From: an uncultured Spirochaetaceae bacterium
Lineage (GTDB): Bacteria; Spirochaetota; Spirochaetia; Sphaerochaetales; Sphaerochaetaceae
Reading direction: 5' to 3'
Length of the DNA: 64,000 nt
Assembly (NCBI GenBank): GCA_944392975.1
Contig: CALXYN010000004.1
Coordinates: forward strand, 1 to 64,000
A program made the translations under genes and the position numbers. Shown in pieces: positions 14,945 to 50,402 of the stretch; position 1 is the first letter of the stretch; each line of letters begins with the position of its first letter. The notes beneath the pieces are model-generated. The model was not told where the DNA came from. It saw nothing but the letters and a program-made list of their open reading frames with translations, and ran no database searches.

Positions 14945-15979
14945 TCACTCAGGATAATATCTCATCTCACCATCTGGAGTTTCGAATATATAGCGCTCTT
15001 TGCCATTATCGTTGACAGATCCTTTGTAATACGTATGGGTGAGTATTACCTTTCCTCCTCCCTGTGGAAGATCTGCAGTGTATTGCGGCATCCCAAGTCC
15101 AGAGAGTTCCTTCCTTATATTCTTCTCTATTTCAAGTCCCCGTTCGATACTTACTCTTAAATGTGCTGTCCCTCGTACCGGATCCCCCTGAAACAGATAG
15201 TAAGGTTTGATTCTTGCCATTAGCAGATTGTCTGAAAGTTCTATCAGTGTCTTTTCATCATCATTGACACCTTTCAGAAGCACGCTCTGGTTGTATGCAG
15301 GAATTCCGGAATCTATGAAAAGCGAAACTGCATGCACTGCTTTTTCTGTAAGTTCCGCGGGGTGGTTGAACTGAGTCATCAGGAAAAACGGAGCTCCATA
15401 CATATGTTTTTTTATTATTCTGATGAGATTCTCTGTAATTCTCTCCGGATATACAGCAACAGATCGTGTACAGAGTCGGAAAATGACATTTGGACAGCTT
15501 GTTTTGAAAATGGAGAGCATGGAATCTATTTTCTCATCAGAGAGTGTAAAGATATCTCCACCGGTCAATAATACCTCGCGGATCTCGTTATGTTCTTTTA
15601 TGTATTTTGCAGCTTCTTTTATTTCCTTTTCATTTGCGGGGCCGGAAAGATGTCCGGTGAAGCGCCTTCGGAAGCAATGCCTGCAATAAGCAAAGCATCT
15701 GTCAGTTGTGAAGAAAGCCGCACGGTTTCTGTATCTGTGAACAAGGCGTTCAGTTCCCTGGTGTTCTTTTTCTTCCTGAGGATCAAGAGAACCGATTGTA
15801 TCTTCATTCTCCTTCTGGGATGGAACGAATTGTTTTCTTATGGCTTCTATTGGTAACAAAGAAACCATATCATCTGAGATAAGCAGCGGAAGTGTAGATT
15901 CCCCACTGCTGTCCCACGCTTTTTCATCCTCCCTGAGCTCAATTAAGGAGGCCAATTCATCCATTTCTGTAATTGCCAT
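14945..15979 (-). CDS. epmB: EF-P beta-lysine modification radical SAM aminomutase EpmB
   Basis: A 344-residue KamA/YjeK-family radical SAM protein. The [4Fe-4S] cluster motif CFAYCRHC is at residues 95-102. A GGD motif (LLTGGDIFTL) and KGVNDDEKTLIELSDNL, the family's PLP-lysine region, follow. The short length and the presence of efp and epmA nearby on the same strand identify it as EpmB, which converts (S)-alpha-lysine to (R)-beta-lysine for transfer to EF-P. It is separated from efp by an MFS gene on the opposite strand. It has no Shine-Dalgarno; TTGCCT-N17-TATAAA ends six bases before the ATG. Confidence 0.9.
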   Translation of the reverse strand: MAITEMDELASLIELREDEKAWDSSGESTLPLLISDDMVSLLPIEAIRKQFVPSQKENEDTIGSLDPQEEKEHQGTERLVHRYRNRAAFFTTDRCFAYCRHCFRRRFTGHLSGPANEKEIKEAAKYIKEHNEIREVLLTGGDIFTLSDEKIDSMLSIFKTSCPNVIFRLCTRSVAVYPERITENLIRIIKKHMYGAPFFLMTQFNHPAELTEKAVHAVSLFIDSGIPAYNQSVLLKGVNDDEKTLIELSDNLLMARIKPYYLFQGDPVRGTAHLRVSIERGLEIEKNIRKELSGLGMPQYTADLPQGGGKVILTHTYYKGSVNDNGKERYIFETPDGEMRYYPE

Positions 15980-15985
15980 GCGGTT

Positions 15986-16014
15986 TTTATAGCATTCAAA
16001 GACGTCTCAGGCAA
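15986..16014 (-). promoter_or_regulatory. Candidate leaderless promoter of epmB
   Basis: On the minus strand, TTGCCT (16009-16014), a 17-base spacer and TATAAA (15986-15991) are followed by AACCGC and then the ATG at 15979. It is the best match to consensus among the leaderless candidates in the window. Confidence 0.6.
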
Positions 16015-16059
16015 TAGAGAATACTGTCTAGATGCGCTAAGGTATAAACAGGAGGAGTT

Positions 16060-17352
16060 ATGGCTGAAAAGAAAAGCCTCTCAGGTTATTGGAGAACGAC
16101 ATTTCTCATCGGACTTGGTTTTTTTACCATGGGACTGATGGATCCGCTGTATGATAATTACATCCCTATGTTCTTGGGAAATTATATTGAGTCTTCATCA
16201 CTCGTTGGTACTGTGATGACTCTGGATAATATTCTGGCAATTTTTCTCATACCGATATTTTCTGCTTTGTCGGACAGAACGCATACTCGTATTGGGCGGC
16301 GTATGCCTTATATCATCACATGTCTTCCCTTGGCTGCTATATTTTTTGCACTTGTTCCATTTTCTGCACTCGAATCATTTCTGTTCCTGTTTGTTACGAT
16401 ATTCCTTCTCAATATCTTCAAACAGGCGGTCCGTGGTCCAGTTGTTGCCCTGATGCCGGATATGGTCCCCGCGGATTTAAGAAGTGAGGCGAATGGCGTA
16501 ATCAATACAATGGGAGGACTGGCTACAATTCTGGGAACGATACTTCTTGCAAGACTGATGGATGTGCGTGTGAATGTTCCAGGATTCGGCGTTGTCGATA
16601 AAGTTCTTGCATTCCCAGTGGCTTCCATTTTCGTACTGCTTGCGGTTCTGCTGCTTTTCATCTTCGTGAAGGAGAACAAAAGTACGGTATCGACGGAAGA
16701 AGAGAGAAAGGAAAAGACAAAAGAACCGATATTAAAAAGTCTTAAAGGCATTTTCTCAGAGAAGGAGAAGAGTGCTCTTTTCATACTTCTTTCCCTTCTT
16801 TGCTGGTTCATTGCTTACCAGGGGATATTACCATTTGTTGGTGTTTACACGATGGAAGAACTAGGTACAAGTGCTGGAACCGCAGCTCTTTCATCAGGAA
16901 TGGTTGGAGTTGCATATGCGGCTTTTGCAGTTCCTTCTGGAAAGTTCGCACATAAATTCGGAAGAAAAAAGACTATTAGAGGGGCTCTTCTGGCAATTGT
17001 GGTCATCCTTCTGCTCGTTTTCCTTCATGGAACCCTTACGCTTGGGATGAATCCCACATTCAGGCTTATATCATTCTGGATACTGTTGTTCCTCTTTGGT
17101 ATTTTCTGGGTTACGGTTGTTACAAACTCATTTCCAATGCTCTGGCAGATGGCAGATTACCAAACGATTGGAATATATACTGGTGCCTATTATTTCTTCT
17201 CGCAGCTGGCCTCTATTATTGCGCCACCACTTGCAGGAGGAACAATTGACCTCTTTGGGTATCCAGCACTCTTCATCTTTGGTCTTATCTTCATGCTTGT
17301 GGCGTTGCTTCTTATGAGGAACGTGCACCGTGGAGAACCTGTTGATGACTGA
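16060..17352 (+). CDS. MFS transporter (GPH/SLC45-like)
   Basis: A 430-residue transporter with about 12 hydrophobic segments. The loop 2-3 motif SDRTHTRIGRRMPYI resembles the glycoside/sugar cation symporter and sucrose-carrier branches. QMADYQTIGIYTGAYYFFSQ in the second half is also typical of that branch. The central loop is charged (ENKSTVSTEEERKEKTKE). GGAGGAG precedes the ATG at good spacing. It lies alone between epmB and efp on the other strand. The likely substrate is a sugar or glycoside, but this is not shown by the sequence. Confidence 0.85.
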   Translation: MAEKKSLSGYWRTTFLIGLGFFTMGLMDPLYDNYIPMFLGNYIESSSLVGTVMTLDNILAIFLIPIFSALSDRTHTRIGRRMPYIITCLPLAAIFFALVPFSALESFLFLFVTIFLLNIFKQAVRGPVVALMPDMVPADLRSEANGVINTMGGLATILGTILLARLMDVRVNVPGFGVVDKVLAFPVASIFVLLAVLLLFIFVKENKSTVSTEEERKEKTKEPILKSLKGIFSEKEKSALFILLSLLCWFIAYQGILPFVGVYTMEELGTSAGTAALSSGMVGVAYAAFAVPSGKFAHKFGRKKTIRGALLAIVVILLLVFLHGTLTLGMNPTFRLISFWILLFLFGIFWVTVVTNSFPMLWQMADYQTIGIYTGAYYFFSQLASIIAPPLAGGTIDLFGYPALFIFGLIFMLVALLLMRNVHRGEPVDD

Positions 17353-17357
17353 TGGAA

Positions 17358-17392
17358 AAAGGGCTGTTTCCGTTTTGGGATAACAGCCCTTT
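17358..17392. terminator. Bidirectional intrinsic terminator
   Basis: AAAGGGCTGTT (17358-17368) pairs with AACAGCCCTTT (17382-17392) around a 13-base loop. A run of A lies on the left and T-rich sequence on the right. It separates the convergent MFS and efp genes. Confidence 0.85.
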
Positions 17393-17411
17393 GTTTCTCT
17401 TTGAGACCTGA

Positions 17412-17975
17412 TTAGCTATTTACTCTTTCGAGATATTCCTTAGTCTCTGTGTTTACTCTGATCTTCTCTCCCTGCTTGATGAAGATAGGAACGCGGACGC
17501 GGAGACCTGTCTCTGTTGTTACATACTTTGTAGCTCCCTGGACAGTATCGCCCTTGACGGCTTCTTCAGCTTCAGCAACTGTGAATACAATCTTTGAAGG
17601 GATTGTGATATCAAGGACCTGATCTTCCCAGAATGTTGCTCTGTATGTTTCGCCTTCTTTCATGAAGTACTCGTAGTCAGGGAAGGACTTCATAGGCACA
17701 TCAATCTGATCGAATGTTTCAGTATTCTGGAAATAGAAATTCTCTCCGTCGTTGTACAGGTACTGGAGATCCCTGTCTTCTACAGTGATGTCCTCGGCGT
17801 TATCCTGGCTCTTCATTGTCTCTGAGAGCACCTGACCTGTTGAAGGGCTCTTGAGCTTAAGACGAACGAATGCTGATCCCTTTCCCGGGTTTACGAACTC
17901 GCGTTCGATGCAGACGAACGGCTGTCCCTTGATAAGGAGAGCAGTTCCCTTGTCAATCTGACCTGCTTTAATCAT
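17412..17975 (-). CDS. efp: Translation elongation factor P
   Basis: A 187-residue EF-P with KOW/OB-fold architecture that relieves ribosome stalling at polyproline. The modified loop reads NPGKGSAF with the acceptor lysine at residue 32, equivalent to Lys34 in E. coli. The C-terminal EF-P signature region (GLRVRVPIFIKQGEKIRV) is complete. A GAGGT ribosome-binding site precedes the ATG. epmA lies 37 bases upstream on the same strand and epmB downstream across the MFS gene, so the factor is expected to carry beta-lysylation. Confidence 0.97.
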   Translation of the reverse strand: MIKAGQIDKGTALLIKGQPFVCIEREFVNPGKGSAFVRLKLKSPSTGQVLSETMKSQDNAEDITVEDRDLQYLYNDGENFYFQNTETFDQIDVPMKSFPDYEYFMKEGETYRATFWEDQVLDITIPSKIVFTVAEAEEAVKGDTVQGATKYVTTETGLRVRVPIFIKQGEKIRVNTETKEYLERVNS

Positions 17976-18012: not shown

Positions 18013-18993
18013 TTACTGCCGTAGCATATCAGAAAGAGGAAATAAAAGTAAAGGTTCTATGCAATTAAGTCCCAGATGAACGGCAAGAAGCCTGTCCAGC
18101 CCCATTGCTCCTCCAGACGACTGGGGAATGGAAAGATCTGTAAATGACGGATCATATGGAGGCGTTACATACTCCGTTCCCTGTCTTTCATTTTCCATTT
18201 TCCTGTATTCCTCAGAAAAATATGTCCTTGTTGCTTCTTTATCGGTCTCTTCGTCATAGCAATTGGCTATCTCGATGCCGGAAATATACATTTCCCAGCG
18301 TTTCTTTGTCGGTTTTCCATCCGAATGTTTTGCAAGACAGGCGATTTTATCAGGATAGTCTGTAAGATAAACCTGTCTGTCTTTTGGTAGTGATGGCTCT
18401 GTGTAGGTGAGGAATATCCTGTTGAATGTATCATCCCAGCTTTCATTTTCACCAGGTTCAAGACCAAGCCGTATAGCTTCCTCTCTGAGGTAACTGATAT
18501 CCTCTGCTTTGTCCATATCAACACCCGCATACTTCAGCATTGCCTCGTGCATGGAGATTATAAGCGGTTTCTCCCTCAGCCATGGTTCTTCTATACCCTT
18601 GAGCTTTGTCTTCTCAATCATTTCCATTGTAATGGCAATGGAGTCTCTGTCATCTGCCCCTACTGTGTAGTATTCCAGCATCGTGAATTCCGGGTTATGA
18701 ACGTCTCCAAGCTGTTCTGCATTTCTGAAACACTGGGAAATCTGAAAGATTGAACCAGATCCTGCTGCTAGCAGTTTTTTCATGAAAATCTCCGGAGATG
18801 GTATCATATAAAGATCTCTGGATCCTTCAAATTCATTCACGAACCTTGTGCCAAATGTCTTGATTGTAGGTTCCGGAATAAGGTATGGGGAAAGGGTAGG
18901 TGTCGAAACTTCGAGATACCCTTTATCTATGAAATAGGTCCGTATATTCATCAGAAGCTCAGAGCGCTTCCTTGCTGCATCGAAATTGTACAT
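18013..18993 (-). CDS. epmA: EF-P--(R)-beta-lysine ligase EpmA
   Basis: A 326-residue class II lysyl-tRNA synthetase paralogue without the N-terminal anticodon-binding domain, the GenX/PoxA/EpmA form. It has motif 1 near FIDKGYLEVSTPTLSPYL, motif 2 FRNAEQLGDVHNPEFTMLEY (about 89-108) and motif 3 GGAMGLDRLL near the C-terminus. It activates (R)-beta-lysine and transfers it to the conserved EF-P lysine. It has no Shine-Dalgarno, and TTGCAA-N17-TACAAT ends six bases before the ATG. It diverges from mnmE across a 48-base gap. Confidence 0.93.
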   Translation of the reverse strand: MYNFDAARKRSELLMNIRTYFIDKGYLEVSTPTLSPYLIPEPTIKTFGTRFVNEFEGSRDLYMIPSPEIFMKKLLAAGSGSIFQISQCFRNAEQLGDVHNPEFTMLEYYTVGADDRDSIAITMEMIEKTKLKGIEEPWLREKPLIISMHEAMLKYAGVDMDKAEDISYLREEAIRLGLEPGENESWDDTFNRIFLTYTEPSLPKDRQVYLTDYPDKIACLAKHSDGKPTKKRWEMYISGIEIANCYDEETDKEATRTYFSEEYRKMENERQGTEYVTPPYDPSFTDLSIPQSSGGAMGLDRLLAVHLGLNCIEPLLLFPLSDMLRQ

Positions 18994-18999
18994 GCTGCG

Positions 19000-19028
19000 A
19001 TTGTATTGCCCTCATCTCTCAGTTGCAA
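19000..19028 (-). promoter_or_regulatory. Candidate leaderless promoter of epmA
   Basis: On the minus strand, TTGCAA (19023-19028), 17 bases and TACAAT (19000-19005) are followed by CGCAGC and the epmA ATG. Its -10 abuts the -35 of the mnmE promoter, and its -35 abuts the mnmE -10. Confidence 0.6.
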
Positions 19029-19034
19029 TACTAT
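19006..19034 (+). promoter_or_regulatory. Candidate leaderless promoter of mnmE
   Basis: TTGCCC (19006-19011), 17 bases and TACTAT (19029-19034) are followed by seven bases and the ATG at 19042. It occupies nearly the same DNA as the epmA promoter in the opposite direction. Confidence 0.55.
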
Positions 19035-19041
19035 TCATGGC

Positions 19042-20352
19042 ATGGCACATTACGTCACAGAAGAGCCCATCTATGCACTTGCAACTCCTTATTCCCCTTC
19101 AGCCCTGGCTGTAATAAGAGCATCTGGGGAAGGAGTCCTGTCATTATTTCAACCATATTTCACTGGAAAGCTGCTTAAGGCATCATCTTCTTCCGCGGTA
19201 CATGGATTTATTGTGGGAAAAGAGGGACACCGTATTGATGAGGTTGTGGTTCTTAAATATGAGGAAGGTCACGGATATACATCTGAGGAAGCTTTCGAGA
19301 TTATGTGTCATGGTTCCTTGCCCGTGATCCGTTCTGTTTCCATGCTTCTTGAGGAAATCGGTATCAGAGAGGCTCTGAAAGGTGAGTTCACATACAGAGC
19401 ATTCATGCATGGCAGGATGGACCTTACAGAAGCGGAAGCTGTAGAGGAAATCGTCAGCTCAAAGACTGCAAAAGGCGCTGGAGAAGCACTTGAACGTCTT
19501 TCCGGATCAATCCTGGCTGAAGCTGAAAAGGCAAAGGACAGCATACTCAATATTCTGGCTTCGCTTGAAGTACAGCTTGATTACGGTGAAGATGAGATTC
19601 CTGAGGACTGGGTGTTTCCATCGGAAGAAATCTCTGTCCTACGCTCTCGTCTTCTTAAAATAGCTTCCACATTCAGATCATCCAGACTCTGGACAGAAGG
19701 AGCTGTAGTTGTCATAGCAGGGCGCACCAATGCTGGTAAAAGCTCTCTTTACAATGCAATTTTGAAAGAAAACAGGGCTATCGTTTCTCCTGTGGAAGGT
19801 ACTACCAGGGATTACATAGAGACAAATGCGGAGATTGCTGGTATTCCGGTCCGTCTTTTTGATACAGCGGGATTGAGAAATACCGATGAGAGTGTAGAAG
19901 CGGAAGGTATCAGGCGCACTGAGTCATTGATGGACAAGGCAGATCTTATTGTATATGTGATTGATTCAGCCTCTGAGGATACTGCACCTTCTGGCAGCAA
20001 TGTCCTTACTGTCTACTCAAAGCTGGACATTACAGGAAAACGTTCTGGACTGGCATTTTCTTCTGTAACAGGAGAAGGCCTTGAAGATGTCCTGGATGCT
20101 ATTGCCGGAAGACTTACGGAAAACCTGGAGTCAGTGGAGGATGTACCGCAGATTGCTTCTGACAGGCAACGGAAGAAGCTTGAGGAAGCTGCGGAGACAC
20201 TTCTGGAAGCTGAACGAAATCAGGATTTCGGATACGATGTTATTGCAATGTATCTCCAAAGTGCGCTTACATCAATTGGCGAGCTTACAGGGGAAGTAAC
20301 GGGAGAAGATGTTCTTGACAGGCTTTTTTCATCGTTCTGTCTGGGTAAATGA
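19042..20352 (+). CDS. mnmE: tRNA modification GTPase MnmE
   Basis: A GTPase that, with MnmG, installs (carboxymethyl)aminomethyl groups on the wobble uridine of tRNAs. The N-terminal formyl-THF-binding domain begins IYALATPYSPSALAVIRASG. The G domain has the P-loop GRTNAGKSSLYNAIL, the switch DTAGLRN and the motif YSKLD. The chain ends with the diagnostic FCLGK. The frame extends upstream to 19006, but the ATG at 19042 matches the family N-terminus and sits seven bases after a -10 element. mnmG follows one base after the stop codon. Confidence 0.96.
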   Translation: MAHYVTEEPIYALATPYSPSALAVIRASGEGVLSLFQPYFTGKLLKASSSSAVHGFIVGKEGHRIDEVVVLKYEEGHGYTSEEAFEIMCHGSLPVIRSVSMLLEEIGIREALKGEFTYRAFMHGRMDLTEAEAVEEIVSSKTAKGAGEALERLSGSILAEAEKAKDSILNILASLEVQLDYGEDEIPEDWVFPSEEISVLRSRLLKIASTFRSSRLWTEGAVVVIAGRTNAGKSSLYNAILKENRAIVSPVEGTTRDYIETNAEIAGIPVRLFDTAGLRNTDESVEAEGIRRTESLMDKADLIVYVIDSASEDTAPSGSNVLTVYSKLDITGKRSGLAFSSVTGEGLEDVLDAIAGRLTENLESVEDVPQIASDRQRKKLEEAAETLLEAERNQDFGYDVIAMYLQSALTSIGELTGEVTGEDVLDRLFSSFCLGK

Positions 20353-50210: not shown

Positions 50211-50216
50211 GTAGCC

Positions 50217-50245
50217 AGGATAACATCAATGAATGGAAATTGCAT
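50217..50245 (-). promoter_or_regulatory. Weak candidate leaderless promoter of the helicase gene
   Basis: On the minus strand, ATGCAA, 17 bases and TATCCT end six bases before the ATG at 50210. The -35 match is poor (3/6). It is listed because the spacing is the same as in the better leaderless candidates. Confidence 0.3.
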
Positions 50246-50345
50246 TATTTGCTGTTATTCTATTTTTCCATTGATCAGATTTGAAAAACATCTTCACAAG
50301 TTTGTGTAATTGTAGTGTCTGGTATAACCATACAATTAGTAAGTT

Positions 50346-50366
50346 CATATTCATTTTGTGAATATG
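50346..50366. promoter_or_regulatory. Inverted repeat, likely TetR operator
   Basis: CATATTCA (50346-50353) and TGAATATG (50359-50366) are perfect inverted arms separated by TTTTG. The 21-bp site lies one base before the -35 of the TetR gene, the usual place for autoregulation. Confidence 0.6.
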
Positions 50367-50367
50367 C

Positions 50368-50396
50368 TTGTTTTGTCTTTGCTCGTACCCTAGAAT
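50368..50396 (+). promoter_or_regulatory. Candidate leaderless promoter of the TetR gene
   Basis: TTGTTT (50368-50373), 17 bases and TAGAAT (50391-50396) are followed by six bases and the ATG at 50403. No ribosome-binding site is present. Confidence 0.55.
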
Positions 50397-50402
50397 GCCT
50401 GT

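What the first reader, a model, noticed from the sequence alone, without database searches (positions are those of the whole stretch)
18991..19044. Two divergent leaderless promoters interlocked in a 48-base gap (epmA / mnmE)
TTGCAA-N17-TACAAT on the minus strand and TTGCCC-N17-TACTAT on the plus strand share 19000-19034. Each -10 lies next to the other's -35, and each -10 ends 6-7 bases before its own ATG. Polymerase can occupy only one at a time, so EF-P beta-lysylation and tRNA wobble modification would be transcribed in mutual exclusion, with both transcripts starting at the ATG.
Basis: partly seen in the sequence, partly recalled or inferred. Interest (0 to 1): 0.7.

Follow-up and report, generated by a model that had tools for sequence, protein, structure and literature searches.

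The report
Interlocked divergent leaderless promoters, conserved
Two back-to-back genes for the protein-making machinery of a gut spirochaete are most likely started by two head-away promoters packed into one 48-base gap, with no untranslated leader on either message; the layout is kept in 15 related species, but nothing yet shows that the two genes switch each other off.

Summary
The window is from a Candidatus Ornithospirochaeta-like MAG (Spirochaetota). In the 48-bp epmA/mnmE gap, TTGCAA-N17-TACAAT (minus) and TTGCCC-N17-TACTAT (plus) abut reciprocally. The main variable base toggles only TTGCAA/TTGAAA, matching the -35 variation of the genome's other leaderless promoters. A -10 lies 6-8 bases before the ATG in 63 of 66 epmA and 58 of 66 mnmE loci of the family; about 14% of the window genome's upstream-spaced genes look leaderless. 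New here: the interlock derives from a layout in which one palindromic TTGCAA is the -35 of both promoters, mnmE's -10 having moved 17 bp inward. Steric exclusion of two polymerases is a safe inference. Regulatory 'mutual exclusion' is not supported: overlap is absent in about a third of the family, and comparable E. coli overlapping promoters do not compete at basal activity. No TSS data exist. New variant of a known kind.

The parts
18013..18993 (-). epmA (EF-P (R)-beta-lysine ligase-like, 326 aa); first gene of the leftward transcript
   Evidence: Best NCBIfam hit genX/EpmA TIGR00462, 244.6 bits against a curated cut-off of 286.9, so EpmA-like
17412..17975 (-). efp (elongation factor P), 37 bp downstream of epmA on the same strand, probably cotranscribed
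   Evidence: TIGR00038 213.9 bits above cut-off; cotranscription inferred from spacing
19042..20352 (+). mnmE (tRNA U34 modification GTPase, 436 aa from ATG 19042); first gene of mnmE-mnmG-rsmG-ftsK
   Evidence: TIGR00450 323.8 bits above cut-off
19023..19028 (-). -35 of the epmA promoter, TTGCAA (read 19028 to 19023)
   Evidence: Invariant in 15 species except one base that toggles TTGCAA/TTGAAA; TTG at spacing 17 is the genome's own leaderless -35
19000..19005 (-). -10 of the epmA promoter, TACAAT, ending 6 nt before the ATG
   Evidence: Zero changes in 15 species; -10 within 6-8 nt of the ATG in 63 of 66 family loci
19006..19011 (+). -35 of the mnmE promoter, TTGCCC
   Evidence: Zero changes in 15 species; absent in the sister lineages whose mnmE -10 sits elsewhere
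19029..19034 (+). -10 of the mnmE promoter, TACTAT, ending 7 nt before the ATG
   Evidence: One change (C/G at position 3) in 15 species; -10 within 6-8 nt of the ATG in 58 of 66 family loci
19012..19022 (.). drifting 11-bp core common to both 17-bp spacers
   Evidence: Mean 4.18 changes per site in 15 species against 0.29 in the hexamers
18993..18993 (-). predicted epmA transcription start at the A of ATG (inferred)
   Evidence: 7th base downstream of the -10; no 5'-end data
19042..19042 (+). predicted mnmE transcription start at or within 1 nt of the A of ATG (inferred)
   Evidence: 8th base downstream of the -10; no 5'-end data

Best explanation
The 48-bp gap is a compact pair of housekeeping sigma-70-type promoters facing away from each other. 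Each RNA starts at, or within one base of, its own ATG, so both mRNAs are leaderless. The pair descends from a mirror-image layout, still present in sister species, in which one palindromic TTGCAA hexamer is the -35 of both promoters. In the window's clade mnmE's -10 came to lie about 17 bp (one spacer length) closer, directly against TTGCAA, and TTGCCC next to epmA's -10 took over as the mnmE -35. Polymerase can occupy only one direction at a time, but the most likely outcome is independent, constitutive expression of two translation-related operons (epmA-efp and mnmE-mnmG-rsmG), not a switch. Shown by comparison: the geometry, its conservation, leaderless positioning, and descent from the shared -35 state. 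Inferred: actual TSSs, promoter activity, cotranscription, and the absence of regulatory exclusion.
For: Geometry. All 15 species of one clade (SH-aLRT 99) keep all four hexamers: 0.29 changes per site against 3.6 outside the hexamers and 6.0 at 21 four-fold sites (0 of 20,000 column permutations reached this). The main free base toggles TTGCAA/TTGAAA, and the genome's TTG-type -35s have C .39 and A .39 at position 4. TTGCCC is present only where mnmE's -10 lies 17-18 bp from it. TANNNT is 6-8 nt before the ATG in 63/66 epmA and 58/66 mnmE loci, against 0-8 at shifted positions. Genome-wide, TANNNT peaks at 6 and 7 nt before starts (74 and 32 against about 13 of 591), with TTG at spacer 17 in 23 of 109. 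Thirteen family loci share TTGCAA as both -35s. Parsimony gives shared -35 for the 24-species ancestor and interlocked for the 15-species clade.
Against: No RNA 5'-end, promoter-activity or proteomic data. The -35/-10 search favours TTG, so single -35 calls in distant loci are soft. The -35 matches to E. coli consensus are only 4/6. The Fitch counts use a quick protein tree. The 17-bp shift could be a deletion or a more gradual change.
Confidence: 0.85

Rival explanations
1. Regulatory mutual exclusion: the interlock exists so that firing of one promoter represses the other, making EF-P modification and tRNA wobble modification anti-correlated.
For: Steric logic: the hexamers abut, and both predicted open complexes lie within one polymerase footprint. 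Close core overlap recurs: 28 of 66 loci interlocked and 13 sharing a -35. A B. subtilis plasmid (pLS20) uses overlapping divergent promoters, plus a regulator, as a switch (PMC4207663).
Against: 23 of 66 family loci have separate core promoters, with gaps up to 131 bp. At five E. coli bidirectional promoters, lowering one direction did not raise the other at basal activity; competition appeared only after strong activation (PMC12825309). The pLS20 switch needs a dedicated regulator; none is encoded beside this pair. One of the 15 species has a 1-bp offset (L009), so exact abutment is not essential.
Confidence: 0.1
2. The conserved inverted repeat GTATTG-N17-CAATAC is a transcription-factor operator and the promoter resemblance is secondary.
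For: The hexamer junctions form an imperfect inverted repeat, and its arms are kept in most of the 15 species.
Against: The right arm changes to CAATAG in L041 and L188, and TTGCAA becomes TTTCAA in 8 of 15 species while the left arm stays TTGCCC: symmetry is not kept, -35 quality is. In sister species the repeat dissolves and the conserved words move with the promoters.
Confidence: 0.04
3. One or both transcripts start elsewhere (leadered mRNA from promoters inside the opposite gene) and the 48-bp conservation reflects translation-initiation signals or another constraint.
For: No 5'-end data exist; promoter-like matches are common by chance.
Against: No Shine-Dalgarno sequence lies before either ATG in a genome where SD is otherwise strong. 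The invariant bases are exactly the hexamers, not the bases nearest the ATG, and the -10-to-ATG distance is kept across a family in which the sequence is not.
Confidence: 0.06

Closest known systems
Leaderless genes of bacteria (TA-led genes; Zheng et al. 2011, PMC3160421; Leptospira TSS map, PMC5243855)
   Same: TANNNT about 12 bp before the start codon, no SD; reported at low frequency in some Spirochaetes genomes and as about 440 mRNAs with 5' UTR under 10 nt in Leptospira interrogans
   Different: Here both genes of a divergent pair are leaderless, and the trait is conserved at this locus across a family; a different spirochaete lineage from Leptospira
Bidirectional promoters sensu Warman et al. 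(PMC12825309, PMC10268837)
   Same: Two divergent starts driven by overlapping core elements, so one polymerase excludes another
   Different: That class shares a symmetrical -10 with TSSs 7-25 bp apart (mostly 18). Here predicted TSSs are 49 bp apart, -10s are not shared, and each -10 abuts the other's -35; in relatives the palindromic -35 is the shared element
Overlapping divergent promoters with a regulator, e.g. Pc/Pr of plasmid pLS20 (PMC4207663)
   Same: Overlapping, opposite promoters in one short gap
   Different: No regulator gene beside it, two translation-related operons, no evidence of a switch

Membership tests
Leaderless gene pair | -10 element ends 6-8 nt before the start codon | tested here: met
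   6 and 7 nt in the window; 63/66 and 58/66 in the family
Leaderless gene pair | no Shine-Dalgarno sequence before the start | tested here: met
   Read directly; SD is otherwise strong in this genome
Leaderless gene pair | mapped 5' end at the start codon | not testable with these tools
   no RNA data held
Overlapping divergent promoters | core -35/-10 elements of opposite promoters overlap or interlock | tested here: met
Overlapping divergent promoters | both promoters active in vivo | not testable with these tools
   inferred from conservation only
Bidirectional promoter (shared -10, TSSs 7-25 bp apart) | divergent TSSs 7-25 bp apart around one shared -10 | tested here: not met
   predicted TSSs 18993 and 19042, 49 bp apart; separate -10s; definition from PMC10268837
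Promoter-interference switch | overlap conserved as a requirement | tested here: not met
   23 of 66 loci have separate core promoters
Promoter-interference switch | output of one promoter lowers that of the other | not testable with these tools
   needs dual reporters

The most novel reading that the evidence does not exclude
A previously undescribed geometry of bacterial divergent promoters: one palindromic -35 hexamer (TTGCAA) used by sigma in both directions, from which an interlocked form, with each -10 against the other's -35, evolves by moving one promoter by exactly one spacer length. It would keep two translation-quality operons coupled through polymerase competition or shared local supercoiling.
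Probability: 0.3. Interest if true: 0.65.

Novelty: new variant of a known kind. Interest (0 to 1): 0.45.

Why it matters
It gives a naturally replicated series of divergent promoter layouts (shared -35, interlocked, partly overlapping, separate) for the same two genes across 66 loci of one spirochaete family, so the effect of promoter overlap on expression and noise could be tested with real orthologues. It also shows strong leaderless signals in a spirochaete lineage for which I found no promoter study, and it lets -35 and -10 preferences of an uncultured lineage be read from conservation alone.

Tried and rejected
The E. coli consensus scan was uninformative: it misses the plus promoter. 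Operator-palindrome idea rejected, because symmetry is not conserved. Alternative TTG start of mnmE rejected by frame-breaking gap lengths. Looked for other interlocked pairs in the window genome: none of the other 13 both-leaderless pairs has this register; one (L153, MoCoBD/ligA) appears to share a GTGCAA/TTGCAC hexamer. One same-genus genome (G079) and one of another genus (G109) were scanned: leaderless peak clear in the first, weak in the second. Literature searches for a shared -35 found nothing on point; the search tool cannot take '-35' as a term, so absence is weak evidence.

Full report
What was checked. The window lies in a genome (G000, 2.07 Mb, 109 contigs) whose relatives include Candidatus Ornithospirochaeta stercoripullorum and stercoravium (Spirochaetota). 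The gap 18994-19041 separates an EpmA-like gene (minus) from mnmE (plus). Both claimed promoters are present exactly as described. A consensus scan with E. coli rules gives no enrichment and lists only the minus promoter, so sequence match alone would not carry the claim.

Divergent epmA/mnmE is conserved across the family. After removing duplicates, 66 distinct loci were compared. On a tree of the two proteins joined, the 15 species with a gap of 47-50 bp around the window form one clade (SH-aLRT 99). In that clade ATTGTA and TTGCCC never change; TTKCAA changes only at K (six times, between G and T); TACTAT changes once. The 11 spacer bases average 4.18 changes, the bases next to the ATGs 2.4 to 4.1, and 21 four-fold degenerate sites 6.0. 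The free base K makes the minus -35 TTGCAA or TTGAAA. Independently, the 23 leaderless-like genes in 1.23 Mb of this genome that carry TTG at spacer 17 have A .39 and C .39 at position 4 of that hexamer. TTGCCC is seen only where mnmE's -10 is 17-18 bp away; in sister species, where mnmE's -10 lies elsewhere, that place reads TTACTC, GACCGC or other words. This dissects the four hexamers into two promoters.

Leaderless starts. In 591 genes with at least 30 bp upstream, TANNNT peaks at 6 and 7 bases before the start (74 and 32, background about 13), beside a strong SD peak; the excess is roughly 80 genes, about 14% (my estimate). TTG sits at spacer 17 in 23 of 109 leaderless-like genes and 0-6 at other spacings. 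At epmA and mnmE the -10 is 6-8 bases from the ATG in 63 and 58 of 66 loci, against 0-8 when the frame of reference is shifted. The G109 genome has only a weak genome-wide leaderless peak, yet its epmA and mnmE keep the arrangement (L213).

Origin of the interlock. In 13 loci spread over the tree, one palindromic TTGCAA stands 17-18 bp from both -10s, as the -35 of both promoters (gap 64-71). Parsimony gives this shared state to the ancestor of the 24 species around the window and the interlocked state to the 15. The difference in gap, 65 to 48, is one spacer length: TTGCAAT(AAGAGCTTATGATGCAT)ACAAT in L044 against TTGCAATACTAT in the window. A deletion between short ATA repeats would do this, but that is an inference. 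The same -17 register is also found in L206 and L203 of another genus, apparently an independent case. Because the minus spacer is 17 bp, putting the plus -10 against the minus -35 automatically puts the plus -35 against the minus -10; the reciprocal abutment is one event, not two coincidences.

Mechanism. Two sigma-70-type holoenzymes cannot sit on 48 bp at once; that follows from known polymerase footprints. Whether this matters depends on promoter activity. Warman et al. 2026 (PMC12825309) found no competition at basal activity in five E. coli bidirectional promoters and repression of the partner only when one side was strongly activated. Across this family the overlap is not maintained: 28 loci interlock, 13 share a -35, 23 have separate core promoters, 2 could not be called. 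The best reading is compact constitutive expression of two translation-related operons; regulated mutual exclusion stays possible but unsupported.

Limits. No transcript data; assemblies are MAGs; genes were called by a simple script; -35 assignments in distant loci favour TTG by construction; the tree was the quick method. The probability of 2.5e-6 for a random 48-mer is post hoc. The statement that the shared -35 layout is undescribed rests on three limited literature searches.

Noticed in passing
L007, L010, L044, L173, L228, L213, L220, L222, L225, L231, L014, L019, L223 (epmA/mnmE gap): One palindromic TTGCAA stands 17-18 bp from both divergent -10s, apparently serving as the -35 of both promoters.
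   Followed up: yes
L153:6222-6287 (window genome, contig C13): Divergent MoCoBD-domain gene / NAD-dependent DNA ligase pair, both leaderless, with one hexamer GTGCAA/TTGCAC 17 bp from both -10s: a possible second shared -35.
   Followed up: partly
window genome (L111-L170 and window): About 14% of genes with upstream space look leaderless; where a TTG -35 is seen it sits at spacer 17 and is followed mostly by A or C.
   Followed up: partly
window 50211-50402: Divergent DUF3427 helicase / TetR-family regulator pair, both with a -10 ending 6 nt before the start, gap 192 bp.
   Followed up: no
window 14945-17975: efp and a KamA/EpmB-like radical SAM gene lie on one strand with an opposite-strand MFS transporter gene between them.
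   Followed up: no
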